DNA from: Dactylorhiza incarnata
Lineage: Eukaryota; Streptophyta; Magnoliopsida; Asparagales; Orchidaceae
Direction: 5' to 3'
Assembly (NCBI GenBank): GCA_033032865.1
Contig: JAWHQI010000099.1
Location: forward strand, 1,373,001 to 1,437,000
DNA: 64,000 bases
In this document: in pieces, positions 16,136 to 59,181 of the stretch
How positions within the stretch are numbered: position 1 is the first letter of the stretch
Layout: each line of letters begins with the position of its first letter
Notes under the pieces: model-generated
Seen by the model: the letters and a program-made list of their open reading frames with translations, nothing else
Databases searched by the model: none
Told to the model about the DNA's origin: nothing
Position numbers and translations under genes: made by a program

Positions 16136-16147
16136 GCTCTAATACCA
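16136..16147 (-). other. primer binding site of element F
   Basis: The - strand reads TGGTATTAGAGC, one mismatch from the initiator Met-tRNA complement TGGTATCAGAGC. It lies 3 bp from the LTR start at 16151. This fixes the right LTR as the 5' LTR. Confidence 0.85.
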
Positions 16148-16150
16148 AAT

Positions 16151-18639: not shown

Positions 18640-18920
18640 GGTTATATTCGAAGCAACGTCGAAAAGAGATGAATTCAACGCACCAAAACATGTCGATGTC
18701 GCTTCTGGAAGTAGTCTGCGCGCGCTTTGTCAAGTTGACGTGACGTCGAGTAGAAATCGGCGTTGCTCCGAATATAGTCAGCAACTATGATGTCGATGGA
18801 GGCGTCGATATGTATCCGATGTTACATCGAGTGCTATTTGAGTGAACTATCACAGTCATCTATCGAAGCTGGCATCGAGTAGAAATTGACGGTGCGTCAA
18901 TTTTTATTCGACGCAGCTCT
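18640..18920 (-). promoter_or_regulatory. palindromic motif cluster between pol and ORF3 of element B
   Basis: There are repeated CGTCGA/TCGACG half-sites of the B family. One clear inverted pair has TGCGTC at 18893-18898 and GACGCA at 18910-18915. The motif is the same as in the U3 of B (3775-4140). It ends about 150 nt upstream of the ORF3 ATG; the sequence ATATAAC (18644-18650) lies at its downstream edge. Confidence 0.6.
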
Positions 18921-22530: not shown

Positions 22531-24085
22531 TGAAAGTGGAGGTTAGATCTTAATGTTACTCTAGAGGGGGGGGGGGGGGGGGGTGAATAGAGTATCAAAA
22601 CATTTCCCTTAATTTTATAGAGAAATTAAAATAGTGATATATATATATGTGTATATTGAGTGATTTATAAAAACTAAATAAAAACAAATCACCACAGCAC
22701 AACAACACAGAAAATCACAAGCACAAAGACACAAGGAATTTTATAGTGGTTCTCCAATAAACCTGGGTACGTCTACTCTTCTACTACACTTGGTAGGATC
22801 CACTAGGTTTTTGATCAGGTGCCCTAGCACCAAGGGATTTTTGATCAGGTGTCCACACACCAAGTGAGCTTTTGATCAGGTGCTCTAACCAAACCACAGG
22901 TTTTTGTTCAGGTGCCCAACCACCAAGAGTTTTACTTTTGAAGGTAGTAAGAACCCTGTACAAGATGGAATAAAAGGGATTAGAATGTTCTTCTCTGTCA
23001 ACAATCTGAGAGAAGACTCTAGTGGATGATGGTGTAAAGCTCCCCCTGTCTGATTGAAATTATTGACAGCTTGAGGATGGAGCTTTCTCTTGAAAATATC
23101 TTCCTTGATAAGCTGATGAATCTGAGAGACAGATGTTCCTTAGATTATTATTGCTCTATAGAAGATTTGAAACTTGCAGCAGAAAGACTGAGAGATTGAT
23201 CTTGAAGATGTTCTCAGAGAATGAGATGCTTCTTGAGGAAGATGAACTTTCTTTTTCTTTCTAAATGATTTCTCTTGACAGAACCTCTGATATTCTCTAT
23301 GTCTATGTCTGTGTCTATTTTCCGTTTTCTTTTCTGGTATACTATATTTTTTGGAAGAATACGACTGATTTGAATTTCAAATCTCTCTGAATAGGAATAG
23401 AATAATCTGCAATAAATCTTTTCTTGGAACTTCCACTGATTCAGCCAATCTTAATTCCTTTCCTCTTCAATAATATATGATATCCTTTTCCAATAAGCCA
23501 AACATCTATATTTCTCGATAGAAGGAATTGGAAGGAGAATAAAATTAAAGGAGGAAAAAAACTTGTCTTATCTGGAAGAATAACTCCAAATGAAGAATAA
23601 AACTGAATCTGATGGATGAACTGAGTTCAGAGAAATAGAATGACTTATCTAAATAATCTGAGAGAACATTCGTCGATCCGAGATAAGATTTTGTCGACCT
23701 GAAGGAAGAGTTCGTCGAACTGAACATCTTATAAAGAATTCGTCGAACTCAGGCTGGAGTTCGTCTATCTCAATATAGAGTTCGTCGAACTGAAGAATTC
23801 ATCGACCGCTGAGCCGCTGAGAACTGAAGATCGTCGACCGCTGAGACGCTGAGACTGGAGCACGCCGTTCGTCAAACACAGAGAGATGGCCGTTCGTCGA
23901 ACGCAGAGAGCAGTTCGTCGAACACAGTGTTGAGTTCGTCGAACATAGAAACTTAGAGAAATTCTAAGTTCTGGCTATCTAATTAGCCTAAAACTATGAC
24001 CCTTAGACTATACAATGGGTGTCAACTTAATCCTAGTCAACACATAGTAATCCTAGCCCAAATCAGTAATAGGGTTGTTCCAACA
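22531..24085 (-). repeat. 3' LTR of element C (copia, 1555 bp)
   Basis: It begins TGAAAGTGGAGG and ends GTTGTTCCAACA. The - strand polypurine tract AAATAGGGGCAGAT abuts its right end. The left flank GACGA (22526-22530) and right flank of C GACGT (42916-42920) match in 4 of 5 bases. It has an 18-G run near the left end. A direct repeat TTTTTGATCAGGTG lies at 22807-22915. The palindrome cluster TTCGTCGAA(C) lies at 23664-23945, which is U3 in the element sense. The other copy is split by element D. Confidence 0.93.
23664..23945 (-). promoter_or_regulatory. palindromic motif cluster in U3 of element C
   Basis: At least ten copies of TTCGTCGA(A/T) or its complement are seen, 140-420 nt from the U3 start. 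The second copy in the 5' LTR is at 42500-42775. The motif differs from that of B, but the position is the same. Confidence 0.75.
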
Positions 24086-26928: not shown

Positions 26929-27265
26929 TTGTACCTGCAAAAGAGAGCGATCAAGTGCAAAGGGGAACTGGAGGGAAAAAGAGCAAATTCTGTAGGCGCA
27001 AGAATAAAATAAAATGAAAACTTTGATTATATAGAGAGATCGGAGAAGGGCGCACACTTTCATAGAGCAGGGTTCGGCTAAACCTAATAGAATCAGAAGT
27101 CGAAAAGACTTAGGGCTTCGTTTGACTGCGTTCGATGAAAAATAAACTTTCGTCGATCTCAGTTCGACAACCGCGCTTGTCTTTATCGTTCCCGACTTAT
27201 TAAGTATTGCCGATCTCCGTTTGACGAACGATAGAATTTCGTCGTTCTCCGTTCGACGAAATGAG
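26926..27265 (-). promoter_or_regulatory. candidate internal promoter for ORF3 of element C
   Basis: Reading the - strand, a cluster of C-family palindromes lies at 27265-27095. One has perfect 8-bp arms, TTTCGTCG (27237-27244) and CGACGAAA (27254-27261). A TATATAAT box follows at 27033-27026, about 105 nt before the ORF3 ATG (26928). Just before the ATG is a pyrimidine-rich tract ending TTTGCAGGTAC, a splice-acceptor-like site. The order palindromes, TATA, start mirrors U3 in the LTR. Confidence 0.5.
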
Positions 27266-27299
27266 GGGATAAATAGAAAATTTAATTTTTATCAGATTG

Positions 27300-30426: not shown

Positions 30427-32548
30427 CCATTGTTCATTCTTTCTTGGATAGCTGTGTACCTGTGAAAAAGAAAAATAAACTAGTTGTTTTTGACCCAGAC
30501 TACCTTGGGTCCTTTTGTATTACCATAAAACTCTGAAATAAAAGACATTTCAGGCTGGTCCTTATAACCTTTTGGATGATATCTTCTTGGAGGTATTATC
30601 CATTCAGTGAAAAGATTGTAAGTATGTGAAGAAAAAGAATTCCTTAAATTTTCTGTATATCTTCTGTTCGACGAACTGGGCTGAGTTTGTCAATCGCCGT
30701 TCGACGAAGGGATATGCTTTCGTCGAGCGTCGTTCGAATAATGACTATGCAGAAAATCTGTCTTCATAGTTCGTCGATCTCCGCTCGACGAATTCGCCTG
30801 ATTTCGTCGAGCTCCGTTTGACGAATTCTGCTGAATTCCCTTATTATTTACAGCCTTGCTTGAAATGTTTTTATTTTCATCTACAACCTCTTTGCTCTTA
30901 GCAGAAATAAATTTTATAGGTGTAGAGAGTATGTTCTTCTTAATTAGAGGTGGCTCACTTGATGATGTACCCAATCCTAGTTTGCCATTTAATCTGGCAT
31001 TTACTGTGCTTGTAATGCCCATCAGTTTGATGCTTCTTCCATTTAGGGATTCTTCAAATTTCTTGGCCGCAGAAAGTTTATTCTCAATGAGAATTATTTG
31101 TTCTCTAGAGGCAGCCAAATCTTTCTTAAGATTAACATTTTCTTCACTTATTTTGTTCATTTCAGCTAGCTTATTTCTGAGAGTGATTATTTCCTTCTCA
31201 GATTTTATTAAGTCTAAGCAAAGAACCTTGAATTCATCTTTGAATTCAACTGAAGTAAAATCAAAATTAGATATTACCTGATCTGCATCATTGTCAGCTT
31301 CAGCTTTTGATTCTTCTTCTTCTGAGTTGTTTGCTGAGGCATTGATAACCATCATACAGAAGCTCTGTTCTTCTTCATCATCTTCATCATCAGAGGAGCT
31401 GGATGAAGATGCACTTGCTGACTCACTGCTTGAGTCGTAAATGGCCATCAAGCATTGGTCTCTTTCTTTTGATTCTTCTTCATCATCAGAAGAGCTTGAT
31501 GAAGATTCTGATTCAGTGTCACTCTTGGTTTCTGCTACAAATCCTCTTCCCTTGTCTTTGTGCTTGTAGGAGGAAGACTTGCTGGAGTGCTTCTTGTCTT
31601 CTTTCTCTTTTCTCTTTTCTTTCTCCTGATTCTCTGGACATTCTGGCAGAATATTTTCAGGTTTCCTTCAACCAAAACAGATAATCTCCTTAGGATTTGA
31701 TTTATCATACCTTGGATTTTCCCTTGATCTGGAGTCTTTCTTTCTGTAGTCCTTCTTAGCCATCTTGTAGAACCTTTTGGCTAGAAGGCTCATGAACTCC
31801 TCATCTCTTGGAGCCTTTTCTTCTTCTTCAGTAGCTTGGAAAGCTATATTCCTCTCCTTCTTGGATCCTGAAGATGAAGTTGATTGTTCAGCTTTTCTGG
31901 TTTTGATAAGCTGCTCATTGAACTTGAGTTTGCCTAACAAGCTCTCAGTTGAGATCTCATTAAGGCTTCTGGCTTCCTTGATTGGCCAGATCCTAGAGTC
32001 CCATGTGCCGGGGAAGCACATAAGTACTTATCATTGATCTAAGTGATAGAGATCACTTTGTCCAAGGTCTTCGGCTCATTGATTATGAGGCTGAGCCTAT
32101 TATACATATTAGCAACTGTTTCAGATTCTCCCTTTTTGAAATTCTCATATTGAGAAATGAGGTGGGATCTTCTGTCCTTTCTTTCATCAGCTGATCCTTC
32201 AACCATATTGTTGAGTGAGATCCATATTTCTCTTGCAGAAGTGCATTCTACCACTTTTTGAAAAATGTCAGCAGACATTGTTTGTGCTAGAATGTTCATT
32301 GCTTTTGCATCTGCACTTCTTTGCCTCTTCTGGGCTTCAGTCCACTCAGGTGGTGGAACAACATTGTTGTTAGTTGTGGTGTCAGCACTAGTTGTTGCTG
32401 TGGGAGCTGGAGGTCCTGTCAAAATCATATTGAAGATTTCCTCATCAATAGAATTCATGTACAACCTAATCCTTGCCTTTCATAGTGCAAACTTACTGAG
32501 ATTGCACATAGGAGGTCTTGTGCTAGAATATTCTTTATTCTGTGCCAT
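30427..32548 (-). pseudogene. copia gag of element C
   Basis: The capsid protein starts at ATG 32548 (MAQNKEYSSTRPP). A Trp-to-stop change lies near 32480 and a further break at 32039. Typical blocks are REIWISLNNMVEGS, LISQYENFKKGESETVANMYNRLS and WDSRIWPIKEARSLNEISTESLLGKL. A degraded zinc knuckle (CFG-RKP-NILPECP) is near 31640-31690. After it come long Ser/Asp/Glu runs, then a coiled coil at about 31050-31240 (SEKEIITLRNKLAEM). A large gag with a coiled coil is a Sirevirus trait. The tail at 30665-30830 carries repeated palindromes that encode a short SS-G-RR type peptide repeat. The protease follows at 30423. Confidence 0.88.
30665..30830 (-). promoter_or_regulatory. palindromic motif cluster inside the gag tail of element C
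   Basis: There are at least four C-family palindromes. The cleanest is at 30770-30792, with arms TTCGTCGA and TCGACGAA and a 7-nt spacer. Another is at 30803-30825. They have the same motif as the U3 cluster (23664-23945) and lie in the reading frame. Confidence 0.7.
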
Positions 32549-34341: not shown

Positions 34342-34390
34342 CGTGGTATCAGAGGGAGGTTACTCCAAAACGGTTTTACCACCGGGAGTA

Positions 34391-38020: not shown

Positions 38021-39460
38021 ACTCTTGTTGATAGACCTAGTGATCATCAGTGGTAGGAGTCAAATGGGTTTTCAAAAATAAATTAGATAGTGACTCTAGG
38101 GTCACTAGAAACAAAGCTAGGCTTGTAGCGAAAGGATATAATCAAATTGAAGGGGTAGATTTTGATGAAACATTTGCACACATAGCACGATTGGAAGCAG
38201 TTAGAATTTTTGTTGCATTTGCTAGTCATAAAAGATTCAAATTGTTGCAAATGGATATTAAAACTACATTTTTAAACGGGTTGATTAAAGAAGAAGTTTA
38301 TGTTGAACAACCCCCACCCCAGGATTTATAAATGAAAAATTTCCTAATCGCGTATATAGATTGCTAAAAGCTTTGTATGGTTTAAAACAAGCACCACGAG
38401 CATGGTATGATATATTGACTTTATATTTATTACAAAATGGTTTTAAAATGGGTGGTGTTGATTGTACACTCTTCATTAAGCAAGTTGATGATAATTTAAT
38501 TGTGTTACAAATTTATGTTGATGATATTATTTTTGGAGCCACTAATGAAGAGTTGTGTAATTATGTTGTAAAAATGATGGAAAGTGAATTTGAGATGAGT
38601 ATGGTAGGAGAATTAAAATATTTCTTAGGATTTCAAATTGTTCCAAAACATGATGGAGTTTTTATTAACCAATCAAAATATATTCATGATGTTTTAAAAC
38701 GATTTGGATTTGAAAATCTCAAACAAGAAAATACTCCTATGAGTGTATCTTTAAAATTAGGAAAAGATGAAAATGGAATATCTATAGATCAAACTTTATA
38801 TAGAGGCATGCTAGGTTCACTTTTATATTTGACTGCATCTAGACTAGATATTATGTTTTCAGTTTGTTTATGTGCTAGATTTCAAGCTAATCCCAAAGAA
38901 TCTCATTTAAAAGCGTTAAAAGAATCTTTAGATATTTAATTGGCACATCTAAACTTGGTTTGTGGTATCCATACAGTGATGATTTTACTTTATTTGGTTA
39001 TTCTGATTCCGATTATGCCCGTTGTTCACTAGATAGGAAAAGCACTAGTGACACTTGTCATTTTTTAGGCCCTTCACTTATCTCTTGTTCGAGTAGGAAA
39101 CAGAATTCTGTTGCCCTCTCAACCACTGAGGCCGAATATATCGCACTTGGTAGTTGTTGTGCACAAGCTCTTTGGATGAAACAAACATTAGAAGATTTTA
39201 ATATTAAACAATAAACTATTGAATTATGGTGTGATAATAAAAGTGCAATTAATTTAACATACAACCTGGTCCATCATTCAAGGTCTAAACACATTGATGT
39301 GAGACATCATTTTATTAGAGATGATATTAAAAATAACCACATTAAAATTTCATTTATAGGCACAGATAATCAACTAGCGGATATATTCACTAAACCGTTA
39401 CCGAATTCCCGTTTTTCTATGCTTAGGCTAGAATTGGGAATCCTAGACATTTCACAATGA
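38021..39460 (+). pseudogene. copia reverse transcriptase/RNase H of element D
   Basis: RT blocks are [11 protein letters not shown] (38050 on), [20 protein letters not shown] and [12 protein letters not shown] frameshift at about 38320 in a C-run leads to [14 protein letters not shown] and the catalytic YVDD at 38514-38525. A second frameshift lies near 38925. RNase H blocks are STTEAEYIALGSCCAQ near 39115 and a stop at 39212-39214, then LWCDNKSA and DIFTKPLP near 39385. The last codons end at TGA 39458-39460. The order and motifs are standard for Ty1/copia. Confidence 0.92.
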
Positions 39461-41131
39461 TTATATCACTACTTATAATCTATATATCAACATCACAAGA
39501 TCTAAACCCTCTTTTGAACACCAAGATCTAAAATGTCTAGATCTCCTAAAACTTCTACATTTTTTCTTCACAAAAACTCAATGAAAACCAAGAGGAATAT
39601 CAAAATCACAAAAAATTTGAAAATTTTTAAACAAAACTTGAAAAATCAAAGTTCCTCACCTTAGATCTAAAGTTTTTCGGCGACCTGGAGCTCTAAATCT
39701 CGGAAAATTTCCTAAAAGTGAAGTGAGGCGTCGGTGGAAAGACGAAACGATTCTTTTTATCTTTTTAGAGGTGTCGGATGGCGACATCTAGCTGTCGGAT
39801 ATCCGACAGCTCCCAAAAATAAACTTTTATTCTTCTCTAGCTTTTTCATTCCCTGTTTCTATTAATGTTCATATAAGAATTTTTTAATCTTGTATAAATG
39901 ATTCTTTATGTGTTATTTTTCGTAAAAATAGCTTAACACATGATTATGATGTTCAATCTTAAGTTATCATTGTAATGACACTTTCATATAGGAATTAAAA
40001 ATTGTTTTCGCATGCCTCTAAGTATAAGAAATCTTTTATCTATGACAATGATCAATCACAAACACTTACTTTGCAAATACATGTTAATAAAATTTATTTT
40101 ATACATACATCATGATTGATCGAACATAACAAAATACATTTCATAAATGCTACCTTCAACTTTGCTACTTTGCACTTATTCAAATTATACCATTTTTTGC
40201 CTGCTAGTGAATTCGGAGATCCTTTACATACATAAATATTAAAAAAAAAACAAATTCAAATGCAAAACATATATTTTGCCAAAAATTTTGAAAGAAATAA
40301 ATTAAAAAAAAAAAATTGAAAAGGATCCTCCACCAAGCACTACTTAGCCTCCTGATAAGTCTTAATGAGCATTGTGAGGTTAAGCACCTTGGAAAGAATT
40401 GTAAAGTGTCTTGTTATGCAAAAACAAAATGGTCCTTTTATGTATACTTGCAAAGTTTCTATAAGTTCATAAGTTTAGCTTTATGTATATTTATGTTATG
40501 TTTAACAATTCCATGATCATGTATATTTAAAATATACACATGTATTCTTTCTCAAAGTATCACTACTACACTTCATTGTTATTTATAAAATTTCTTCTTA
40601 TGAGAATTGGACCGAAACGATTCAATATTCTATCTGCTAATGTGTCGTTCTCTGATAATTGAACTTGAATCTCATAATGGTTAAGTATATTTTCTTTATG
40701 TATATTGGTAACAGATAACTAGAATGCTTGGCCTCATCTCTAAGGTTTCCTATCTTGATATCATATCACTTACAAAGCTTCCGCAAGTGTACTCCAACTT
40801 TCCCTATAATCTTTCTTATTTTCTACCATATCTCTATGATACTCCTTCCTCGTCTCTATTCATTACTTTTGATAATATCAAAGGGGGAGAAGATAATAAG
40901 AAATCACTTAAATCACTTAAAATACTTAATTAATACACTGAGCATACATGTAGGGGGAGTTTATATGTCGGGGGAGAATATTTTTGGAAGGAGCTAATAT
41001 TAAGGGGGAGATCATATTAAGGGTGGAGATCATGGAGATCATATGTTCACACTTGATATAATTTTCAATATCTCTATAGGATTTATTTGATTTCTTTTTA
41101 TAAGGATTTGTTATTATCAAAAGGGGGAGAT
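39461..41131 (+). other. post-pol non-coding region of element D with repeated polypurine tracts
   Basis: The region is 1.67 kb of AT-rich DNA with no credible gene. It holds a perfect 22-bp palindrome of the D-family motif at 39790-39811 (AGCTGTCGGAT and its complement). Near its end are repeated polypurine motifs: AAAGGGGGAGA (40880), TAGGGGGAG (40951), CGGGGGAGA (40969), TAAGGGGGAGAT (41001), and the functional one AAAAGGGGGAGAT adjoining the LTR (41119-41131). Multiple polypurine tracts near the 3' end are described for Sireviruses. No ORF3 like those of A and C is seen. Confidence 0.8.
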
Positions 41132-42394
41132 TGTTGGAGCATGCGTTCCGCACTCGTCCGATTTGAGAATAACAAATCCCGAATGTATTTGATCCTATTT
41201 TGATTAATGGTGTGCAGATAACAGGTGCAAGAATAACATGTTTGCAATTGGAGCAAAATACCAATTTTCCAAAAATTGGAGCTATCGGCTTTCCGACAGC
41301 AGTACTGGATTTCCGACAATGCACGATTTCTTCCGTTCTCCGATCTCTACTCAACGTTTTAGAGATATCAGATTTCCGACATCAGTAATGGATTTCCGAC
41401 AGTGCACGATCTTCCCGTAACTCTACGACGTGCAGTAGTTACGCAAGCTAACGGATATCCGATAGTGCTATCGGATATCCGACAGCCCACGTCTCAACCA
41501 CGACTCAATCGCGATCGCCACTCTCCGCAAAAATGTCGAATACATGGGACACGTGGCACCTCTGGAGCTATCAGATTTTGGCGATAGCTAGCTAACAGAT
41601 GGCGTTATCTATCTCTTATACAAAAGGGCTCAGAACTTCGTTTAATTCATGCTTTCAGACCTCCAAGCTTTCTTCCTGAGTGTTATCATCCAGAGAGCTC
41701 CAGATAATGAAAATCCCCATCCTTGAAGAAGAAAAGAGAGAGCGAAGTCGAATATTGTACATGCATTCCAAGGAGATTTTCTCAAGGATTCTTCGCTGCT
41801 TTGTTCCAGAAATTTTAAAGGGGGTTTTTATTTTGTATTTCATTTACATTTACATTTATCTTGTAATCGTTGGAGAAATCGTCGTCTTGCGTGCGACGTC
41901 CAAGCCCTTGCGTGGCTTGGTGGGAAAATCGCCTCCTTGTGCGTGGCGTCCAAGTCCTTGTGCGGCTTGGTTGGGAAAGTGTAGTATTGTGCACTACGTC
42001 TAGATCTTGAGAAGATCTAGAGGATAGGCTTGGGCTTGGTCTAGGAAGAGACAAGTGATAGCCTTCCGATCCTTACGAGAAGGATTGGTAAACTCAAATT
42101 GTTAAAAGTTTATTATCATATTTGTGACTTGATCTTAAGCATTGTTAAGATCATTTTTATTATATGTGAATTTCATGATTAAAAAATTATGACTTTTTCT
42201 TTAATTGCAAATTTGGTTGCTTAATCTTTAACTTAGAAATTTGTGTTTGAATTAATTTAAAATTACATTGGTTTGAATTTTTTTATAAGTAATTTTTAGA
42301 AAAGTAAAATTTGTTTAAAAATTCTTAAGTTAAAAATTATAATTTAAACACACCCTTATTCACCCCCCTTCTAAGGGCGTCACACGATCCAACA
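41132..42394 (+). repeat. 3' LTR of element D (1263 bp, complete)
   Basis: It starts TGTTGGAGC after the polypurine tract and ends GATCCAACA, giving the inverted terminal repeat TGTTGG/CCAACA. It is about 96% identical to the left copy by eye. It is followed by GTCTTATCTGG, which is the LTR of C at its position 23565. The left target duplication has been deleted. Confidence 0.95.
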
Positions 42395-42915
42395 GTCTTA
42401 TCTGGAAGAATAACTCCAAATGAAGAATAAAACTGAATCTGATGGATGAACTAAGTTCAGAAAAATAGAATGACTGATCTGAATAATCTGAGAGAACATT
42501 CATCGATCTGAGATAAGATTTCGTCGACCTGAAGGAATAGTTCGTCGAACTAAACATCTGATAAAGAATTCGTCAAACTCAGGCTGGAGTTCGTCGATCT
42601 CAATATAGAGTTCATCGAACTGAAGAATTCGTCGACCACTGAACTGCTGAGAACTGAAGATCGTAGACCACTGAGACGCTGAGACTGGAGCACGCCATTC
42701 GTCGAACGCAGAGAGATGGTCGTTCGTCGAACGCAGAGAGCAGTTCGTCGAACCCAGTGTTGATTTCGTCGAACATAGAAACTTAGAGAAATTCTAAGTT
42801 CTAGCTATCTAATCAGCCTAAAACTATGACCCTTAGACTATACAATGGGGGTCAACTTAATCCTAGTAAACACATAGTAATCCTAGCCCAAATCAGTAAT
42901 AGGGTTGTTCCAACA
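42395..42915 (-). repeat. 5' LTR of element C, part 2
   Basis: It matches 23565-24085, including the U3 palindrome cluster (42500-42775) and the end GTTGTTCCAACA at 42915. Element B resumes at 42916. Confidence 0.93.
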
Positions 42916-44613
42916 GACGTGTATGCATAGTTACGTTGATAATAATTCAATGCAGAATATTGGTTGCGTCGAATAGAATTCGACGTACCCTCATACTTGC
43001 TTCGAGTTGATGTCGAAGCATATGCTGAACTCTGCCGAGTTACATTCGACGCATCTTTAAAACTGCGTCGATTTCTAGTCTACGTATGTTTTTTTTATTA
43101 AGATTTTTATGATTTTTATTTGCCTTTTCTAAGGGGGGTTTACCTAGAATCCCTATTTGATTAGTAATATTTACCCTATTGAATATAGTGAGTTTATTAG
43201 GGTTATTATTTTGACTCCTACCATTGAGTGAGTCCTCAAAGGCTTTTGCCTTTGTAAGTTCTTTCTCTAAATCAGAATTTTCATTAACTAATGTGTATAT
43301 TTCTTTTTCTTTCTTAAACAATTGACCTCTCAGATCATAGTTAACTAAGTACAGAATGTCTTTCATAAGGTCTTTTAGTTCTATTCTGATTATGTTAAGT
43401 TCCTTTTGACTGTTAATATAATCTTGACAGAATTGTTTGAAACAATCTTTAAAGTCTTCTGAGGAATATTCAAAATCATCAAAAATAGTTACCTAATTTT
43501 CAGCAGTAGAGTCTTCCAGAGCCATTAAGCAGGCTTCTTCAGTTCCACACTCTTCATCACTATCAAATGAGGAGGAGCTTGGCCCAGACTCTGAATCACT
43601 CCAAGTTTCAGCAATGAAACCTTTCTCTCTTTTCTTATCCTTCCTCATGAAGGATTTCTTCTTATGCTCCTTCTTCTGCTTATCTTTGTTACTGCTCCTG
43701 TCCCTTTATTCCTGTGGGCACTCGGGGGCTATGTGCCTTGGCTTGTTGCAGGAGAATCAAATCACTTACTTCTTCGGAGTCTTATAAAATCTGGGTTTTG
43801 AGCTCCTCTCTCTTCTTCTTGAGTCTTCTGTCTTGACCCACTTTCTGAATCTCCTTGCTAAGAGACTGAACATCTCACCTTCAGGAGTGGAGGGCTCTCC
43901 TTCAGCAACCTTCAAAGAAAGGCTCCTTTGGATGGGAGTTGAGGTTGTCTCCTTTGCCTCTGTTTCAACCCTGCTTTTCTATAGCATCTAATAAGATTTG
44001 AGCTTTCCTAGCAAAACAGCAGTAGAGATCTCTCTATAGCATCTGGACTCTCTGATGGCCCAGATCCTTGAGTCCCATGAGCTTGGGAAGCACATGAGGA
44101 TCTTATCATTGATCTCTGTCAAGGATCTCCTGTCCAGACTCTTTAGCTCATTGATAATGATGCTGAGTCTGTCATACATTTCAACAACACTTTCCTCAGC
44201 TTTCTTTTGAAAGTACTCATATTAGGATATGAGAAGGGACTTCCTGGCCTTTCTTTCATCAGAGCTCCCTTCTACAATTCTGGAAAGGGATTCCTACATC
44301 TCTTTTGCTGATTGACAGCCAGCTACTTTCTGGAAAATGTCATGTGACATTGTGGAAACCAGAATGTTCATTGCCTTGACATCACTGCCTTCTGCTTCTT
44401 CTCAGCCTCTGTCCACTCATTCCTTAGAACAACATCCAGTGTTGAAGATCCACTGACATCTTGTCTGACTGGAGCTGGGGGACCTGAAATTATACCATCA
44501 AAGATGTCTTCATCAATAGAGTTCATGTACATCTTTATTCCATCCTTCCAAAGTGTAAACTTATTTAGGTTACACACTGGTGGTCTTATTGATGCATAAT
44601 CCTTAGAACTCAT
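42916..44613 (-). pseudogene. copia gag of element B
   Basis: The capsid protein starts at ATG 44613 (MSSKDYASIRPP, close to the start of the C gag). It is open to 44368, then in other frames through LISEYEYF-like, EMYDRLSIIINELKSLDRRSLTEI and WDSRIWAIRESRCYREISTAVLLGKL. A degraded zinc knuckle (FSCNKPRHIAPECP) is near 43730-43770. A Ser/Asp-rich region follows, then a coiled coil at 43366-43230 (LFKKEKEIYTLVNENSDLEKEL). The tail at 42955-43090 carries B-family palindromic half-sites. It is broken by several stops and shifts and is split from its C-terminus by element C. Confidence 0.87.
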
Positions 44614-44721: not shown

Positions 44722-46319
44722 TGAAAGTGCACAGTGTGCCTCCGAGTATAGAAGGGGGGGGGGGGGGGGGGTGAATAAGGTTTTAAATATTTTCTTCCCT
44801 AAATGTACACACAATAAAACTACTAAGGAATATGCAATCAACACTACCAAGACAAAATAAAGTAAATGCAAGAAATATAAATACAAAAAACTGTAAAGAG
44901 GGACATCACAGAAAATTCAATCCAGAAGACACAAGATTCTTATAGTGGTTCCCCAAAATGTGGGTAGTCCACTCTTCTACCTCCCTGGTAGGATTGCACT
45001 AACAGTGTCTGAGTTTTTTTGATAAGGAGACTCTCAGAACCACTGAGTCTTTTGATAAGGAGACTCTTCAAACCACTGAGTCTTTTGATATGGAGGCTTT
45101 TAGAACCACTAAATCCTTTGAAAGAGGGATTAATAAAACTCTTTTACAGATGATGAATAAAGAAGAAGAAAGAGAGAAAGAGGAGAATAGAATTCTGCTT
45201 TCAGAATTCTTCAGAAGCTATTTCTTTTAAACTGATGCTTCTGTTTATCACTGGATCTGAATATAATGAACCCTTGCTTATGATTGTGATTATTGCAAGG
45301 GTTATTGGCTTGATCCTTATTCTATGAGCACTTCTTCTAAACTTACTGCCGTGTGATGAAGAAGAAGAAGCAACTATGATGTTTTCCTGTGCAGAGAGAT
45401 AACTTCTTTTCTGTCTTACGGTTGAAGGAGGAAGAAGAGAAAGCCTTATTCGACAGATAGAAAAATTTGTGATCAATGCTTATGTTTTTTTATTCTCCTC
45501 TCATCATACTTATTCTCCATGATTGGAATTTAAATTTCTTTCTTCTTTTGGGTTGTCCTGAAAAGGAATTCCTATTGGACAGTTGATTTCCCTTTCTTCA
45601 ATTGTTCCCGACCCGTCCATCAGATTTGAATACATTCCAAGATTGTTTTTGCTGTCTCTTGGAATACTCCATTCCATTCTTGGCAATAAACGAGTCGTTG
45701 GAGAACTGTCTTCAGCATTGTGGACCTTCTGAAAAGGTATTAAAAGAATAGCTGAAAAAGATTCATTTTCAGACTGTATTCGATGCTGTGTCGACTTCAT
45801 CATTCTTCATATCGACGCACATCTGAGTTCTTATAGGAGTAGCTTCGAATTCCTTTTTAGCTCTGGCTGAACTCAGATGTTGACATTGCGTCGATTACTT
45901 ATCGACGTAACTGTCGAGTTGAAGACTTGGACTTGAACTATATCTTCTGCGTCGAATTGAATTCGACATTGCGTCAACTTCTAAGATGGCTTTGACAGGC
46001 TCTTCCTTCTGCATTGAGTTCCTTTCGACGTTGCATCGACTTGACATGTACTTTGACAGGCTGATTGGGATGCTTTGTCTTTCAGTTAGAGTTACGTCGA
46101 CATCTACTCGATGTTATGTTGACTTCTATTCGATGCAAGTTTTAACTTAACTGAATTTGTGCTTATATTGACCTGGTCTTAACACTCCAAGGTGAGTGTG
46201 ACATCCTAAGACATCTAATGACCAATTTAACCATTCAATACAATATGGGTAATACAACCTAACTGATGAAATCACTTTAAGTACTTTGTTAAATAAATCA
46301 CAAGAGTTTTTTCCCAACA
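44722..46319 (-). repeat. 5' LTR of element B (1598 bp)
   Basis: It starts TGAAAGTGC and ends CCCAACA, with an 18-G run at 44754-44771. It pairs with 2705-4314. The open frame at 45510-45803 on the - strand is not conserved as a protein and is discounted. U3 palindromes lie at 45775-46135. Confidence 0.92.
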
Positions 46320-46531
46320 CTATCTCTATTGCTAAGAATCCTATCTTTCATAGCAGGACTAAGCATATAGAGATAAGATATAATTTTATTAGAGAACATG
46401 CAGAATGTAAAGATATCTGCCTTGAACATGTACCCATTGACAATCAAGTTACAGATATATTTACAAAGCCATTGGATGAGGCTAAATTTAATGGTTTCGA
46501 AATTGAGCTAGGAATGTTGAACTTAGAATAG
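46320..46531 (+). pseudogene. RNase H C-terminus of element A
   Basis: This is the continuation of the pol interrupted at 2704. Its blocks are ISIAKNPIFHSRTKHIEIRYNFIRE and the terminal DIFTKPLDEAKF motif, ending in TAG at 46529-46531. Its frame joins that of 2704 when element B and one target copy are removed. Confidence 0.93.
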
Positions 46532-46675
46532 GCTTCAACATTTCATTTTGTCAATCATGTTTGTTGTTTTATTACTTAAGCTTTGCTAAACGATAGTCAT
46601 GCTTTAAAACACTTAGTGACATGATTAATGGTAATACAATCCAATTTAAAAGGGTTCACTACTAGGCAGTGAGTT

Positions 46676-46898
46676 CAGCTGAGACAGTCTTAGCTGAACT
46701 GCTGAGATAGCTAAGTCGTCTCAGCGGTTATCACTGAGACAGTTAAGTCATCTCAGTGGTTAAGTTTTCATTGTCCCAACGGTCAAGATTTCCATCTCAG
46801 CAGATCCTCTGAGACGGGATTGCTTAATTAAAATATCAATTAATTAAGTCTAATAAACATCGCACTTTAAGAATAAATTGTAATACACCTATAAATAG
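46676..46898 (+). promoter_or_regulatory. candidate internal promoter for ORF3 of element A
   Basis: Two tandem 32-bp units (46702-46733, 46734-46765) have arms CTGAGA / TCTCAG. They are flanked by further dyads, for example TCTCAG 46795-46800 with CTGAGA 46809-46814. A strong TATA box CTATAAATAG is at 46889-46898, 103-112 nt before the ORF3 ATG at 47001. The palindrome is specific to A. The arrangement equals that seen before ORF3 in C. Confidence 0.55.
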
Positions 46899-47000
46899 TG
46901 CTATGTTGATTAAATCACACTTTTCACACTCTAAACCCTATCTAACCATCGAGAGGACCCTTCATTTCCCGCCGACTCAGCGACTCATTTTTCTTCATGA

Positions 47001-48661
47001 ATGGCGCCAAAGAGTTCAAAGGATCTTCTGGAAGGGTATGAGATAATAAGGAATGGCTTTCAACATGTTTAACCGGAGATTAGAGAACTGATTCAACTTC
47101 TGGAAGGACATGAGATAGAATATCTACTGTCAGAGCCATCAGTGATTCTCAGAACCGAAGTTATGGAACTGTACAGTAAAGCAAGGCTTTCTTCTTTCAA
47201 GTCCTCTATAAATTCCAACATTGGAGGTTTGAAGATTAAGATATCTCCAAGGAAGATGGAGAAAGCATTTCAACTGCCATCCTGTAGTAATGATGTGGAA
47301 GACAGTGTGTCTGAAAAAGACAAAGAGAAAGCCCTCAAATGGTGTGAGTATAGTGATGCCAAGACTGGCTCACTAAAGAGAAAATATTTCAATCAAAGAG
47401 GGAAGCTACTATCAGATATTGTAGACAAAGCATTAATTTGCAAACTAGGGTCCCATGATACTATTTCAAAGTTTATGTTTGAGCCTATGATAAGAGTGGT
47501 CTTGAAGAAAAAGTCCTCATAGGCTGCTGTGATCTTCCAAAGGATCAAAGAATGTATGTAGGATCCAAACCTAGGCATAATTCTTTCTCTTTATCTTCTG
47601 AACTCATATCCTAAAGAATTTGATAGCTCCAAAGGATCCAACCTTCACTACCTGAAAAGAATGGACAGAAAAACTCTGTATAGGTTCTCAAGAGTGCTCC
47701 CAATGAGTCAGCCCTCTGAGGGTAAGGAGAAGAAAAAGGAAGTTAGTCAAAGGACTAAAGAATGCTAGAATAGTAAGTTCTGATTCACATTCAGAAGCTG
47801 CTGAAAATGTCCCTGCTGAGGATGATCAAGGATCTGCCAGCAATCTAGACAAAGATGTTCATGAAGAGCATGACAGTGAAGAACATGAGGATCATGCTGC
47901 TACTATAGAGCATGAGAAAGATGAGGATGATGCTGCTGATGAAGAGAAGTCTGATGGAAATGAAGGAGATCATACTCAAAGTCATTCTCCTAATCCTCAA
48001 GATGCTGATAATAATGCACACACTGTGCCTGCTAAGTCTGCAAGACATGAAGAGGAGCAATCTGATTCTCTTGGTGATTTGCAAAGTAAGATTGACACAA
48101 TTATTCTTAATCTTGAAAGAAGAATAAGTCTAATTCCTGATAACTCCCTAGATTTCTTGGATTCAACTGATCCAGAAAGGATGGATGCCCTATCTGAGGG
48201 GGAGGATCAAGAGAACTTATAAGGTAATGGAGATGTTAGCATTGACAGTGATGATGGAATTGCTGCTGATAAGAATGATCAGACTAAGGGGGAGCATATC
48301 CCTACTCTGGCTGAGGAGGAGCATGAAGAACATGCAAAGGAGCCATCCACTGTACATGAGTGTGCTAATCAAGACCTATAAGAGAAAAGCATTCCCACTG
48401 TGGTAGCAGAAGTACAACCCTCCACCTCTGCAATCTCAAATGAACTTATCCTAAGTTCCATCAGTACACTTATTGATGGTCATATGACCTCAATAAAGGA
48501 ATATATTGATAAATATATTTCTTCAGTCAAGAGTGAAGTAATGTCTGAAATTCAGATAACAAAGGAAGAATCTTCTTACCTTAATAGGCAGATGGCCAAG
48601 TGGTTTGATCTAGCTGAAAAGTCAGTTGTAGCTTAGAATACAATACTGAGATCAATGGACA
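47001..48661 (+). pseudogene. ORF3 of element A (about 550 codons, 3'-truncated)
   Basis: This extra ORF after RNase H starts at ATG 47001 (MAPKSSKDLLEGYEI). The N-terminal domain has RTEVMELYSKARLSSFKSS and a helical block GKLLSDIVDKALICKLGSHDTI. The latter aligns with FLADVVGKVLLGKTSAHDYI in the ORF3 of C. A very acidic segment (47790-48000) and a C-terminal helical segment (about 48430-48630) follow. TAA at 47070, TAG near 47520, a frameshift near 47760 and TAAs near 48220 and 48380 break it. Element G cuts it at 48661. Polypurine motifs (GAGGGGGAGG, AAGGGGGAGC) are embedded in frame. Function is unknown; there is no signal peptide or membrane segment. Confidence 0.75.
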
Positions 48662-51124
48662 TGTAAGACCCTCCTTTTTTTTTTGCAAAAACCACCGGGT
48701 CTTAGGCCCAGAACCGCCGTTTTGCGGTGACACCTTCGCTTTGGAAGGTCGCCACTACAAAATGCCGATCCTGCCGGCCAAATCGATCACAAGAAAAGTA
48801 AGCTAAACTGAATAGTAGATCAAACTAAGTCCACATCACATATATAAGTAAATCATCGGAAGATGTCCACAATGTAACTGAAAGAAAGGAAACAAGATAA
48901 CTAGGGCCTTGCCCAATACATCAAAGCCTCACTACATGGTTCACTCGCGGAAGCAAAACAACTAAATCAACACTCACGGATCCTGTTATCTGAGCTCCTG
49001 AGCTAGACTGCCCCGCCTCCATTTGCACCGGCCTCCGGTGCTGCTCCGTCGCCGCGGTCTCCTAAAATGATAAGGTCCACCGACCGTCAGTCATAAAGAT
49101 TCAGCCAATTCCCCACCCCTCCCCCCCAAGGCTCCTAGGCACCGGATGGGAAGGAGGAAGCGGAGGACAAACAAGGGGTAGAAACAAATGCAGGTGACAA
49201 GGTAATATCTACGCTACACAGGTGATATATATATATAAATGAAACAAGAAATAGAAACAGCAGGGTAATGTATAGGAAAAGCAGTAATGAGCAGAAGTAG
49301 AGGCAATTAAGTATTATATTATTAACCATTGATTTATAGGAGTGCTCATGCAAACCTATAGACCAAGGTGTCGTTTAGCAGGGCCTATTGTATAAAAAGT
49401 CCCATACCAATTTATACGATAGGTGTCAGGGGTTGAATGCAATGATTATGCTATGTCATGCAAGTATGTTGTTATGCGGTGATCAAACAAGTGCAACTCA
49501 CCCACTACGACTCTATGCGCATAGACCTTTAGTTCCCCCTTTTTGGAGCGAGCTAGACTCCCCGGATACTCCCGTAGTGGCAAACGGAAGCGGTGGGTTG
49601 GGCCCCGCCCACCTCTAGGTTGGTATATGCACTACCCGACCTAGACCTATCGTACGCCTCCACAAAACCCGCGGAGCGTCTGCGTACTCTTACTGACTGG
49701 ACCGCCAGATTTTATGGCTAAGTGCAAATACCGCACCAGCCGAGCCCAAGTATCAACGTCGGTGCAACGACCGCCAACACGAAGGACCCACCACCTTATG
49801 CTCATGCAAGATATCTTTCAACAACACCGAGCTACAAGCTCCCTGGGCTAACCCGCCCGTCACCAATAACCTTCCGAGCCATAAGCTCACCAGACTAACT
49901 AGTCTGCTGCAACAGCCACCGAGCCCATCGCTCGGACAGCCAATCCAACTAAACTTCCGAAACCACAGGGTATGGATGAGTGTGTTATTAGTTAATCTCG
50001 TACAATGTCTTACTCCTATGAGTTAGGGTTAGTCTTGGACTTCCCGAGGGTTACCCTGTGAGGGGCTCGCTACGGTACTAGGAACCACTATGGGATGACA
50101 CCCCAAAGTTCCCACTCCCAAGACACTTAATTTTATTAGTTACTACCCTTAAGAAACCCTCTTAACATTTCACCTGGTCTAATCCTAAGTGCTTTAAGAC
50201 ACTTAGGGGAAAAGACGATCTTTCGCCAAATCCCAAGATGACCTACCCCAATGGAGGCACCCCACCATCCCAGAACTCTTCAACCTTAAATCTCTCCAAG
50301 GGTCCTCTCATACCATACATTCACCATTCAATTCCCACATCTCCAAACAATGTATTCCAAATTGGCCTGTAACTCCAAAACTGCCAATTTACTAAACGCA
50401 GACCACCCTTAACGTTTTGATCCTCATGAAGGGAAGTAGACTAAATAACCAACTCCTGGACCCAAGGGATTTACTGGGGACCCATGCTACCTATTTCAGA
50501 TTAAATCTAGGGTTTCATAATTTTTCCAATAATAATAGTATTTTAAATAATTTCCCAAAGGGCCATTTTACCAAGGTTTGAACTACAAGTGTACTTTTCT
50601 GACCTCCAATGCCTACTCCAATTTTTACATAAAACAATAGTACCTAATAAACAGTAGGTATAAAATTTTAGGAAAAACTAGCAAGATTTACTATTTTTAG
50701 AAATTCCAAAACACAATTATTTCCAATAAATTACAAAGGAGGTACCCTCATATGATCTCTAAACCTCTTGCAAATCAGTACAGTGGTGCTTCATAATATA
50801 ATATGCAGTCCTACAAAGTTTGACCATGTTCCACAGAGGGCATATTTGTAATTACATCCAAGGATATATTTGCAATTTCTTCCAAAATGAACTAGAGGCA
50901 CCAAGAATATTGATCCATAAATTATGGGAAAATTACAGTGGTAACATATTGTTATGAAAAGACAACCAGCAAAGTTTCATGTATTTACAGTAACTCAACA
51001 TCATAAATTTAACCAACCCAAAAATTGCCAATAATGAGGAATATTACAATTTGGACCTCCAAGGGTTAACTCATGTTCTAACCAATTCTTCCAGAGATTA
51101 ATATAATTAAAACCATGTTTATGA

Positions 51125-51690
51125 CAGAAGATGGTAAATTGATAAGTACTATTTCTCCCTAAAACCCCAAACCCTAATTATTTACAAATCTACCCAAGGG
51201 TTTATTGCCTATGATGGCAACTCCAAATCCCTCCAAATTCTCGCAGTAGCATTCCCTAGTCACCAAGGCCACATCCCCAAAATTTCAAGTCAAACCATTA
51301 AGGTTTGACCCCTCTTCCTTCATTAGCTTCTAATTGCACCCCATTAGGGTTTAGCCTAGGGTTAGGGTCTAACCTTCTCCAATAGCTCAAGTAGGAACTC
51401 CAGAGATTCATAACCTCAAAAACAAGTGGGAGACAGAAGGTGATGATTCCCTAAGTGTTATTTCTTCCTAGAACTCCAAATTCCAATTATTTACAAATCT
51501 ACCCAAGGATTTATTACCTAGGTTAGACAACTCCAAACCTCTTCAAATTCACAAGGGAGTCTTCTCTGGTCACTATGACCTACCCACCAAAACTTTAGGT
51601 CAAACCACTAGGGTTTGACCCTACTCCCTTCATTGACCTCTATTTGCACCCCATTAGGGTTTAGCCTAGGGTTAGGGCCTAAACATCTCC
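51125..51690. repeat. internal ~300-bp tandem duplication in the LTR of element G
   Basis: Two diverged copies (about 51150-51390 and 51455-51690) share TTATTTACAAATCTACCCAA, the CCCATTAGGGTTTAGCCTAG region and the order between them. The same pair is in the right LTR near 61670-62210. The AGGGTTTAG strings look telomere-like, but they are not tandem. Confidence 0.75.
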
Positions 51691-53464
51691 CAAACCACTC
51701 AAACCTCTTGAGGGGAAATTATACCACTCCTAGAACTCAGAGAGGTCTATTGCACTTCTCCCCATGGACACTTACTCCTTCATCCTTCACAAAACCCTAA
51801 AAGGCACCATAAACTCAACCACTAGGATTTATGGGCACAATAGGCCCTAACCCACCCAAAGTTGCTCCTTGGGGTGCCTCCTACCTCCCAAGTCCATACT
51901 ACTCACTATACTGACCATGGGTCAGTGAAAGACCACCCAAGATCCTACCAACATTTGGTGGGGAGTGGAATTCCAATGGGTACCTATTTGGGGTGCAAAT
52001 AGCAATTTAGCCCCTTTTTGATTTACTAAGGCAAAACTCCTCCAATGGCCACCAAACTTGGACCAGAGGTTGGCATGGGGGAGGGTGAGGTGCACCCCAA
52101 ATATGGAGCCAAAAGACCTTGTGGAAGAGTGGGGGCACTCACCCAAAGTTTTGCCTAAACCTAGGGAGCCTAAGGTTGTTTTGGTGGAATACCCTACCAA
52201 AACAACTCCATAAATCATGATATTTTAACCAGGGCCTATACATACCCCCTAAGACCACCCCTCCAAGATTGGAAGGGTTTTGAGGTGTTTAGGACACCTA
52301 ATTAGGTTAAACTAGGATTATTGGTCTTTCCTAAAAAATTAAGGAGAAAGCTTCTCCAATCCTTGTGATCTTTGGACATGACCTATACATGCCTAATACT
52401 AGACCACACCCCAAATATCAAGTCATTTGGAGTTATATAATGGGGTGGGCATCAAAAATAAGTTCTGATTAGCCCTAAAGACAGCCCCCACTAAAATGAG
52501 TGATGAGCCCTAACCAGGACTCCAAATTGAGTGATCTCAATTTTGTATGAAACTAGACATCAAGGGCTACATTTTCTATGTTGACCACTTTTTACGATTC
52601 GGCCTCTAACTATTTTTCCCAGATTTAAATAGAGGCTGCAGATTTAATCATAGAAATAAAAGAGAATGAACTAAGCCGCACGAATCTTAAAGCAGATCGG
52701 ATGGCGCTGGGTCATCGTCCCCAAGGAATCAACGGCATGGATTTTACGCGCCTGGGCCGTCTTGGTAAGTGATTTCCCGGCCACCTGAGCGCCGCCCCGG
52801 CCGACCAACGCCACCACCACCTCCGTTGAGGTGGGGGCCGACGATGAGCGGTGTTTGATCGGCCGGAGGTGGCCGGAATTGTGTTCTGCAGAAGGATACC
52901 CAACCCGATCAACGGGAGGCTTGGCCGACTCGATTCACGGCCGATTGACCCCGATTTGAGCCGCCGTCGATTTGGATCTAATCCTTAGGGTTCAGGGAGG
53001 AGAATGGGACCTGCTGGAGGGCTTGCCGTCGGGTCAATCTCGAGTACACCATGGGAGCTGCCGTCGGTTGAGATGCCATGCCAATTCCTCCTACAGTGCA
53101 CGAAATATCCAGGTGACTTAGGGGTTTCTCTCCTCTCTGGTCTCTGAAGGTGAAGGGGGGTTCGAATGGGGGTGATGGTGGCTTTAAGCTTCATTGCCAT
53201 TAATGGCCCCTTCGGTTTCTTCAAAGGCCGGCCCCTCTTCCTCTCCTTTGCCTTAATCTTCCTTAGTAACTGATGGAAACTCCTCCTAATCGGCTGAGGA
53301 GTTGAATGGAGGCATCAATTGGGGAGGCCAAGAGGTAAAACCTCTTAATGGCCATGAATGGCTTCCTCTCTCTCTTCAAAAATGGGGAAACCCCCATTTT
53401 CTCTCTCCTAATCACCATGGTCGGTTTCTATACTCTCTCCTGAGTTTAATGAGGGTCCACATGG

Positions 53465-54035
53465 GCTGGTTGACCATCCAATTGAGTTAGCCCAAAGAGA
53501 TTGGGTTAGGTTTGAGTATTTTGACCTAAATTGGGCAATTTTGACTTTTGGTCAAATTGGTCAATTGGGGAACCCTAGGATGGGGCTTTTGGGTTCAATA
53601 GGTTCCAAATTAAGTTTAGGAACTAATGGTGGAGTCAATTTGGTCATATGGTTCTTGGTTGACCCAATCTAAGTTGATTTGACCAAAATAGGCTAAATTG
53701 ACTTTGGTCAAATTGAGCCCTAGGGTTGACTTGGTCATGGGGCTTTTTGGTCCACTAGCTCCCTTATGACAAGATAGCCCTATGAGTGAGGTAAATTTAA
53801 TGTGGTGAAGGTCAATTGGGGTACTTTGAGAAGAAAAGTCATTTTGACCTAAAAAGGGCATTTTGGTCAATTTGCACCCCTGGGGGTCCCATGATGGGGC
53901 TTTTGGGGCCACTAGGTCTATAATGGTATTCTAAACCTAGGGGTGTGATCAATTTGACATAGTGAGGGTTGATTGGCTCTAAATGGGCTACTTTGACCAA
54001 TTTGAGGGTTTATGTTGACTTTGGTCAAATTGGTC
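53465..54035 (-). promoter_or_regulatory. TTGAC/GTCAA-rich cluster in U3 of element G
   Basis: There are about 20 TTGAC or GTCAA pentamers in 570 bp, many paired as TTTGAC...GTCAAA dyads. The position is about 260-830 nt from the start of U3 in the element sense. TTGAC is the core of the W-box bound by WRKY transcription factors (established); that it is used here is inference. Confidence 0.5.
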
Positions 54036-59166: not shown

Positions 59167-59179
59167 GCCTCTGATACCA
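59167..59179 (-). other. primer binding site of element G
   Basis: The - strand reads TGGTATCAGAGGC, matching initiator Met-tRNA, 2 bp from the LTR at 59182. This fixes the right LTR as the 5' LTR and the element as - strand. Confidence 0.92.
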
Positions 59180-59181
59180 CT

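What the first reader, a model, noticed from the sequence alone, without database searches (positions are those of the whole stretch)
46676..47003. Palindrome cluster plus TATA box directly upstream of ORF3 in element A: a possible internal retrotransposon promoter
Between the end of pol (46531) and the ORF3 ATG (47001) there are two 32-bp tandem palindromic units (arms CTGAGA/TCTCAG, 46702-46765), another dyad at 46795-46814, and a canonical CTATAAATAG at 46889-46898. This reproduces the order found in the U3 of D (family-specific palindromes, then TATACAAA). Repeated palindromes upstream of the TATA box are described for Sirevirus LTRs; a second set in front of a third ORF is not something I know of. 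It suggests that ORF3 is transcribed on its own.
Basis: partly seen in the sequence, partly recalled or inferred. Interest (0 to 1): 0.85.

Follow-up and report, generated by a model that had tools for sequence, protein, structure and literature searches.

The report
Palindrome array before retrotransposon third gene
An old plant jumping gene carries a cluster of palindromes and a TATA box just before its third gene, which looks like a second promoter; the idea is already in print for this group of elements, but sister elements in the same stretch show such clusters matching their own terminal repeats, and a further cluster inside an earlier gene.

Summary
Between pol (stop 46529-46531) and the ORF3 ATG (47001) of element A lie eight CTGAGA-type half-sites (46679-46817). 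The tile at 46651 has the most perfect dyads of 1276 tiles, and 0 of 500 shuffles reach it. A canonical CTATAAATAG follows 72 bp after the array.
A's own LTRs are not in the window and the genome search did not complete (16 attempts), so the proposed test could not be done on A. Two sister elements here (D, F) hold both an LTR and a pol-ORF3 spacer, and each spacer shares its own LTR's words above chance. This is the published Sirevirus 'repeated motif' layout (Bousios 2010), where an internal promoter for the third ORF was already proposed.
Against a simple promoter reading: D and F carry a further array inside the gag 3' end, and high-ranking splice-acceptor-like sites sit at the pol and ORF3 starts of D and F. 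A has the TATA box but no such site directly before ORF3.
Verdict: a family-specific regulatory palindrome array, most likely serving an internal ORF3 promoter in A (0.5), with splicing and an element-wide address signal as live rivals.

The parts
46322..46531 (+). 3' end of pol (RNase H C-terminus) of element A, resuming after the nested insertion of element F
   Evidence: Reading by eye; F insertion 2705-46319 bounded by CTATA/CTATC; Pfam finds nothing on this 69-aa piece alone
46672..46817 (+). Palindrome array: eight CTGAGAYRG-like half-sites in mostly alternating orientation
46672..46700 (+).
46702..46765 (+). Two 32-bp tandem units with CTGAGA/TCTCAG arms; 29-bp copies 86% alike
46795..46814 (+). 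Dyad TCTCAG-N8-CTGAGA
46823..46848 (+). AT-rich dyad CTTAATTAA-N8-TTAATTAAG
46889..46898 (+). TATA box CTATAAATAG, 72 bp after the last half-site; transcription start about 46920-46935 is inferred only
47001..48658 (+). ORF3 of element A, broken by stops and a frame change, cut at 48659 by a Ty3 element
   Evidence: related to D ORF3 and to P0121
27131..27260 (-). Array of element D between pol and ORF3 (TTCG-A/T-CGAA motif), with CTATATAATC at 27025-27034 and ORF3 ATG at 26926-26928
26935..26949 (-). Splice-acceptor-like site CGCTCTCTTTTGCAG directly before the D ORF3 ATG, second of 8644 AG sites
18648..18915 (-). Array of element F between pol and ORF3 (TGCGTCGA motif); ORF3 ATG at 18496-18498; acceptor-like AG at 18516
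30667..30825 (-). Array of element D inside the gag 3' end, 207 bp before the acceptor-like AG at 30460 at the pol start
42965..43071 (-). Array of element F inside the gag 3' end; motif copies continue beyond the D insertion at 22476-22516 (that part was not flagged by the window scan)
23669..23943 (-). U3 array of D (3' LTR 22531-24085); 5' LTR counterpart 42520-42773
45787..46137 (-). U3 array of F (5' LTR about 44722-46319); 3' LTR counterpart 3776-4133

Best explanation
Element A is an old, interrupted Ty1/copia element, probably of the SIRE (Sirevirus) kind, with a third ORF. The region before ORF3 carries a family-specific array of palindromic half-sites. SHOWN: the array, the TATA box, and, in two sister elements of the same window, that an array in front of ORF3 repeats the motif of that element's own LTR. 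INFERRED: the half-sites are DNA-binding sites of a dimeric factor that also acts on the LTR promoter. In A that factor activates a TATA promoter at 46889 whose transcripts would start near 46920-46935 and be translated from the ATG at 47001, so that ORF3 is made separately from gag-pol.
For: Array far above chance. A canonical TATA (score fraction 0.00002 of positions on both strands) lies 72 bp after the array; D's spacer has CTATATAATC (fraction 0.0003) 97 bp after its array. Published averages for Sirevirus LTRs, motif to CpG-island edge about 45 bp plus island to TATA 37 bp, sum to about 82 bp (the sum is mine). F spacer and F LTR share 38 canonical 9-mers against 11.4 expected (0 of 300 shuffles); D 18 against 7.9 (3 of 300); the A, D and F spacers against the other LTR or LTRs of D and F are not enriched at 9-mers. 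A scan along the internal parts of D (83 windows) and F (68 windows) finds enrichment at the pol-ORF3 spacer and the gag 3' end; in D it also runs into the pol 3' end. A lacks a good splice acceptor within 80 nt before ORF3. RNA folding is not a common property of the arrays, which fits DNA sites better than RNA hairpins. A plant precedent, maize Grande gene23 with its own (antisense) promoter, is cited in PMC7264820.
Against: A's own U3 could not be seen. F's spacer has no good TATA (best fraction 0.0034), and neither have the gag 3' ends of D and F (0.0026, 0.0045); the LTRs of D and B give only weak TATA scores too (0.0017, 0.0026), and F's best (0.0004) lies within its array, so the spacing is compared with published LTRs, not with these. 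D and F carry arrays in the gag 3' end although the pol frame there has no Met upstream of the protease motif in D and only the residue directly before it in F, so an array alone does not mean a promoter. Acceptor-like sites at the D and F ORF3 starts suggest splicing. A review states that env-like genes are transcribed from the 5' LTR (PMC7264820). A is a decayed copy and no transcript data are held. The B LTR against the D spacer is mildly raised (14 against 7.1, 12 of 300). The TATA and acceptor matrices are recalled, not taken from a call, and the spacing comparison is after the fact.
Confidence: 0.5

Rival explanations
1. ORF3 (and, in D and F, pol) is made from spliced RNA that starts in the 5' LTR. 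The arrays lie in the removed stretches and act as intronic elements or are bystanders there.
For: Of 8644 AG sites in the window, ranks 1, 2, 4 and 23 are the D pol start (30460), D ORF3 start (26935), F ORF3 start (18516) and F pol start (22240). Best acceptor within 80 nt upstream: matched by 0.07%, 0.13%, 0.25% and 1.4% of positions respectively. In D, a donor-like CAG|GTAATA at 31277 (top 0.6% of GT sites, fifth best inside D) and the acceptor at 30460 would join the gag and pol frames (phases worked out by hand; one in three by chance). Splicing of a plant env-like mRNA is reported for barley Bagy2 (PMC7264820), and of an Ogre intron (PMC6317226 passage).
Against: A has no good acceptor-like AG just before ORF3: 80% of positions have one as good; A's only high-ranking one (rank 14) is at 46356 inside pol, upstream of the array. 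Splicing does not explain why the motif also sits in U3. The 12-mer TTTTGCAGGTAC also occurs once inside D pol at 29126. No leader donor shared by D and F was found. The donor at 31277 is only tentatively matched in F, where MAFFT aligned the site with a shift. Sirevirus gag-pol frame changes have been put down to translational recoding (PMC5009743 passage; PMC2829016).
Confidence: 0.27
2. The arrays are an element-wide address code: family-specific sites in U3, gag 3' end and pol-ORF3 spacer, bound by one sequence-specific factor, perhaps encoded by the element, that keeps the copy unmethylated or marks it, in the way VANC proteins act on VANDAL elements.
For: Three sites per element in D and F share one motif, which differs between D and F. 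VANC targets are short motifs in tandem in introns, intergenic and terminal regions that differ between related families (PMC5735166 passages). ORF3 pieces show no membrane-like stretch (maximum 19-residue hydropathy 1.20 over 12 pieces); a D ORF3 piece holds a basic SSKKRKAKLKSK stretch.
Against: No DNA-binding fold shown; the model of one ORF3 piece is unusable (pLDDT 39). B carries motif copies in LTR and linker although no sense ORF of 150 aa or more lies in its linker. Such motifs are published for elements without an env-like ORF (PMC2829016, Table 3). F ORF3 pieces show no relation to A or D ORF3.
Confidence: 0.13
3. Palindromes and TATA in A are relics without present function in a dead copy, spread by slippage or gene conversion.
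For: A is broken by stops, by F (LTRs 90% alike, so A is older) and by a Ty3 element.
Against: Position and motif matching recur in D and F with different motifs. Loss of function now would not remove a function in the active ancestor.
Confidence: 0.1

Closest known systems
Sirevirus repeated motifs (RM) upstream of the env-like gene and of the LTR TATA box (Bousios et al. 2010, PMC2829016)
   Same: Palindromic, family-specific, clustered; in U3 upstream of TATA and again between pol and the third ORF; internal promoter proposed there
   Different: A, D and F motifs differ from the CGG-CCG core reported for 12 of 13 published motifs; A has an explicit canonical TATA after the internal array; D and F have a further array inside the gag 3' end, which the parts read do not describe; B has linker copies although no ORF3 was seen
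SIRE-lineage extra ORF, eORF-3'F (Neumann et al. 2019, PMC6317226, passages)
   Same: Sense ORF after pol, reported in 74% of SIRE elements, very diverse
   Different: A and D ORF3 are related to each other and to P0121, and P0121 weakly to Pfam Transposase_32; no membrane-like segment in the pieces examined
Maize Grande gene23 (Gomez-Orte 2013; seen only as cited in PMC7264820 and as a reference title)
   Same: Extra gene between pol and 3' LTR with its own promoter
   Different: Antisense orientation; Ty3/gypsy (recalled)
SIRE1 env-like ORF by stop-codon suppression (as cited in PMC2829016)
   Same: Same lineage and gene position
   Different: [quoted passage not shown] here by 362 to 515 bp
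VANC/VANDAL anti-silencing systems (PMC5735166, passages)
   Same: Family-specific short motifs repeated in several non-coding places of one element
   Different: VANDALs are DNA transposons (recalled); no evidence here of a binding protein

Membership tests
Sirevirus (SIRE lineage of Ty1/copia), element A | Copia-type reverse transcriptase | tested here: met
   A 1118-1765: RVT_2 E 1.4e-32; 63% identical to D over 163 aa
Sirevirus (SIRE lineage of Ty1/copia), element A | Several AGGGGGAG polypurine octamers close to the 3' LTR | tested here: inconclusive
   Two in sense in A (48197, 48287), but within the ORF3 region; the end next to A's 3' LTR is outside the window. 11 in the window, 2.5 expected: A 2, B 4, F 2, D 2 (one of them in its LTR), Ty3 region 1
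Sirevirus (SIRE lineage of Ty1/copia), element A | PBS TATCAGAG, long LTR, poly-C integrase signal | not testable with these tools
   A's LTRs are outside the window. D and F have TTGGTATCAGAG and C runs at the LTR 3' end
Sirevirus (SIRE lineage of Ty1/copia), element A | Clade membership on an RT or INT tree with named references | not tested
   No labelled reference set was built
Sirevirus RM cluster (Bousios 2010) | Palindromic motif repeated between pol and the env-like ORF | tested here: met
   A, D and F. Excess of dyads over shuffles is clear for A (0 of 300), weaker for D (18 of 300) and F (8 of 300)
Sirevirus RM cluster (Bousios 2010) | Same motif in the element's own U3 | tested here: inconclusive
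   Met for D and F; for A the LTR is not available. The U3 arrays themselves do not all exceed shuffles in dyads: D 32 and 79 of 300, F 94 and 0 of 300
Sirevirus RM cluster (Bousios 2010) | CGG-CCG core and CpG island | tested here: not met
   A core CTGAGA/TCTCAG, spacer CpG o/e 0.65 at 36.5% GC; D and F spacers o/e 1.72 and 1.35 at about 40% GC. One of 13 published motifs (Tnd-1) also lacks the core
Internal RNA polymerase II promoter | TATA box at a fixed distance before a transcription start | tested here: inconclusive
   TATA present; no transcript data
Internal RNA polymerase II promoter | Capped RNA 5' end in the spacer | not testable with these tools
   Needs CAGE, 5' RACE or long reads
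Spliced env-like mRNA | Strong acceptor directly before ORF3 | tested here: not met
   Not met in A; met in D and F
Envelope protein | Transmembrane segment | tested here: inconclusive
   None in 12 pieces of A, D and F ORF3; the proteins are incomplete

The most novel reading that the evidence does not exclude
In this branch of SIRE-like elements one family-specific palindrome code is written at three places, U3, the gag 3' end (inside coding sequence and a candidate intron) and the pol-ORF3 spacer. It is read by a single sequence-specific factor, possibly the ORF3 protein, that switches the copy on or protects it from silencing; promoter activity at ORF3 is one output of that code.
Probability: 0.12. 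Interest if true: 0.85.

Novelty: new variant of a known kind. Interest (0 to 1): 0.5.

Why it matters
How the third ORF of SIRE elements is expressed, and what the palindromes in their LTRs do, has been open since it was raised in 2002 and 2010 (as told in PMC2829016). This window offers three families side by side. They yield a concrete promoter candidate with a TATA box (A), a promoter-plus-acceptor candidate (D) and an acceptor-only candidate (F). The palindrome array inside the gag coding end is a feature that a pure promoter model does not predict, so it separates the models.

Tried and rejected
RNA hairpins as the common function: fold z-scores over ten stretches run from -5.0 (A) to +1.9 (part of D U3). 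Both D U3 stretches, the D pol-ORF3 array and the B U3 stretch are not better than shuffles, while A, the D gag array, both F pol-ORF3 stretches, the F gag array and the F U3 stretch are. So RNA structure is not excluded for A or F. Rfam has nothing at 46300-48700 at gathering thresholds; no tRNA in the window. Bacterial-type promoter and terminator scan: none in 46532-47003 (not relevant to a plant). Spacer as a duplicated LTR: rejected for D and F, similarity is limited to short matches, at most 39 bp in F and 31 bp in D. Relatives: an ORF3 and an RT query gave no loci in viral contigs; A ORF3 piece, 28 candidates, none below 1e-3; the F RT piece finds plant copia proteins (7995 scored, capped; among the 120 listed identities reach 67%), host not identified; genome contigs gave three distant loci, 29-40% identical, not used; the D ORF3 N-terminal part found one relative among 38 candidates, P0121. 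Structure prediction of one A ORF3 piece failed (pLDDT 39), so no fold search was made. The occurrence of TCTCAGYGG in D's LTRs was not used as evidence for A's LTR, since A and D are different families.

Full report
What is in the window. Element A (plus strand) is read at about 320-2704 and again at 46320-48658 (by eye). The gap is a nested minus-strand element, F (2705-46319; LTRs 90% alike over 1570 bp), flanked by CTATA and CTATC, which interrupts A's RNase H. F in turn hosts D (minus strand, 22531-42915; 3' LTR 22531-24085; its 5' LTR is split by B and has lost part), and D's 5' LTR hosts B (plus strand, 33122-42394). A Ty3 element starting at 48659 cuts A's ORF3; its LTR pair 48659-53479 and 59179-64000 is 99.3% alike. 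None of A's LTRs is in the window. A, D and F have a third ORF after pol; B shows no sense ORF of 150 aa or more in its linker.

The observation. The array is larger than described: eight half-sites, CTGAGAYRG and close forms, strands + - + - + - - +, from 46679 to 46817, seven of them with exact CTGAGA. The largest dyad, 46672-46700, was not listed. Eight perfect dyads stand against 0.64 expected and a maximum of 6 in 500 shuffles, and the tile is first of 1276 in the window. Counting only dyads with two or more G/C per arm, A has 6, no shuffle of 500 reaches it, and 6 of 1276 tiles, its own among them, have as many. The two 32-bp units differ at four of 29 positions, all transitions, among them CG against CA and TG, as expected of old methylated DNA (by eye).

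The key test. This cannot be answered for A, but it can for D and F. F's pol-ORF3 spacer shares 38 canonical 9-mers with F's LTR (11.4 expected, 0 of 300 shuffles reach it) and D's spacer 18 with D's LTR (7.9 expected, 3 of 300). At 9-mers the other pairings of the A, D and F spacers with the D and F LTRs are not enriched; at 8-mers the F LTR against the A spacer is 47 against 37.5 (33 of 300). The B LTR against the D spacer is mildly raised (14 against 7.1, 12 of 300) and B's linker matches B's LTR (71 against 46.5, 1 of 300). In a scan of the internal parts in 300-bp windows against U3, those with at least 8 shared 9-mers that 0 of 100 shuffles reach are: in D, 9 of 83, namely 6 running from the pol-ORF3 spacer into the pol end and 3 at the gag 3' end; in F, 4 of 68 (3 at the pol-ORF3 spacer, 1 at the gag 3' end); in B, 3 of 65, all in the linker. 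In D the two windows at 27286-27585 and 27386-27685 contain no array; their shared 9-mers are other words. The motifs differ by family: TTCG-A/T-CGAA in D, TGCGTCGA in F, CGGATATCCG in B, CTGAGA in A.

TATA box. CTATAAATAG of A has score fraction 0.00002 of positions on both strands (recalled matrix); D's spacer has CTATATAATC (0.0003); F's spacer has none better than 0.0034; the gag 3' ends of D and F have none better than 0.0026 and 0.0045. A's box is 72 bp and D's 97 bp after the array. PMC2829016 gives, for LTRs, a TATA on average 37 bp after a CpG island whose edge lies about 45 bp beyond the last motif; the sum, about 82 bp, is mine. The LTRs of D and B in this window have only weak TATA scores (0.0017, 0.0026), and F's best in both LTRs (0.0004) lies within its array, so the comparison rests on published LTRs.

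What does not fit a plain promoter. D has motif copies at 30667-30825 and F at 42965-43071 and 22476-22516, all within the 3' end of gag; the scan flags the D array and the first F part. In the frames shown, pol in D has no Met between its last upstream stop and the protease motif DSG, and F only the residue directly before DSG, so a transcript starting there would not give pol a usual start. High-ranking acceptor-like sites lie at the starts of these ORFs: ranks 1 (D pol), 2 (D ORF3), 4 (F ORF3) and 23 (F pol) of 8644. A's ORF3 has no such site within 80 nt (80% of positions are as good); the only high-ranking one near it, rank 14, is at 46356 inside pol. B's pol start has a moderate one (4.1%). 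In D a donor-like site at 31277, fifth best in D, and the acceptor at 30460 would keep gag and pol in frame, which chance gives one time in three. The arrays end 132-236 bp before the acceptors and 150-203 bp before the ORF3 ATGs, so a promoter and an acceptor could both serve ORF3.

ORF3. A's largest N-terminal piece is related to D's (37 aa at 40%, tblastn 7e-5 and 1e-5) and to a protein from an unnamed ENA source, P0121 (28% over 143 aa, E 2e-13), which is 61% identical to D ORF3 and starts with the same MAISQ, supporting D's ATG. P0121 matches Pfam Transposase_32 at 9.5e-5, below the curated cut-off; the A piece gives 0.077 and the three D pieces tested give no such match. F ORF3 pieces match neither. 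Hydropathy gives no membrane segment in 12 pieces.

What is known. PMC2829016 (abstract, passages, sections 6, 9 and 10 read) describes palindromic motifs in 13 Sireviruses, with extra copies upstream of the env-like gene in the nine that have it (77 of 79 linker copies upstream), recalls the 2002 proposal of an internal promoter, and says that none could be identified conclusively. Thus the pattern is known and the idea is in print. PMC7264820 (section 3, parts 1 and 2 of 3 read) says that env-like genes are transcribed from the 5' LTR. Searches bearing on this point listed no experimental test of a promoter before a Sirevirus third ORF that I recognised from titles, abstract starts and the passages read; absence there is not absence in print.

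Verdict. A is a new case of a known kind, with a clear TATA box. D and F add the motif match to their own LTRs, arrays inside gag, and acceptor-like sites. I hold the internal promoter as the best reading for A at 0.5, splicing at 0.27, an element-wide address code at 0.13 and mere relic at 0.1.

Noticed in passing
window 30667-30825 (-) and 42965-43071, 22476-22516 (-): Copies of the element's own U3 motif inside the gag 3' coding end of D and F, a place not mentioned in the parts of PMC2829016 that were read.
   Followed up: partly
window 30460, 26935, 18516, 22240 (-): Splice-acceptor-like sites ranking 1, 2, 4 and 23 of 8644 AGs sit at the pol and ORF3 starts of D and F.
   Followed up: partly
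window 39542-40041 (+): Element B has U3-motif copies in its linker although no third ORF was seen there; B also has four AGGGGGAG octamers near its 3' LTR.
   Followed up: partly
window 23814-23846 and 42668-42676 (-): TCTCAGYGG, the unit end of A's array, also occurs three times in the two D LTRs (5 in the window, 1.0 expected).
   Followed up: no
window 33122 and 23007-23564: D's 5' LTR lacks about 558 bp present in its 3' LTR, and B's 5' LTR start is missing at the same junction, as if one deletion removed both.
   Followed up: no
window 6834-18066: Long direct duplications about 4.4 kb and 2.5 kb apart (91-97% identical) inside the nested insertions.
   Followed up: no
window 51090-51690 and 61611-62212: Internal repeats of about 310 bp within the long Ty3 LTRs.
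   Followed up: no
window 46933-46940 (+): An AAACCCTA motif lies at the expected start of an ORF3 transcript in A.
   Followed up: no
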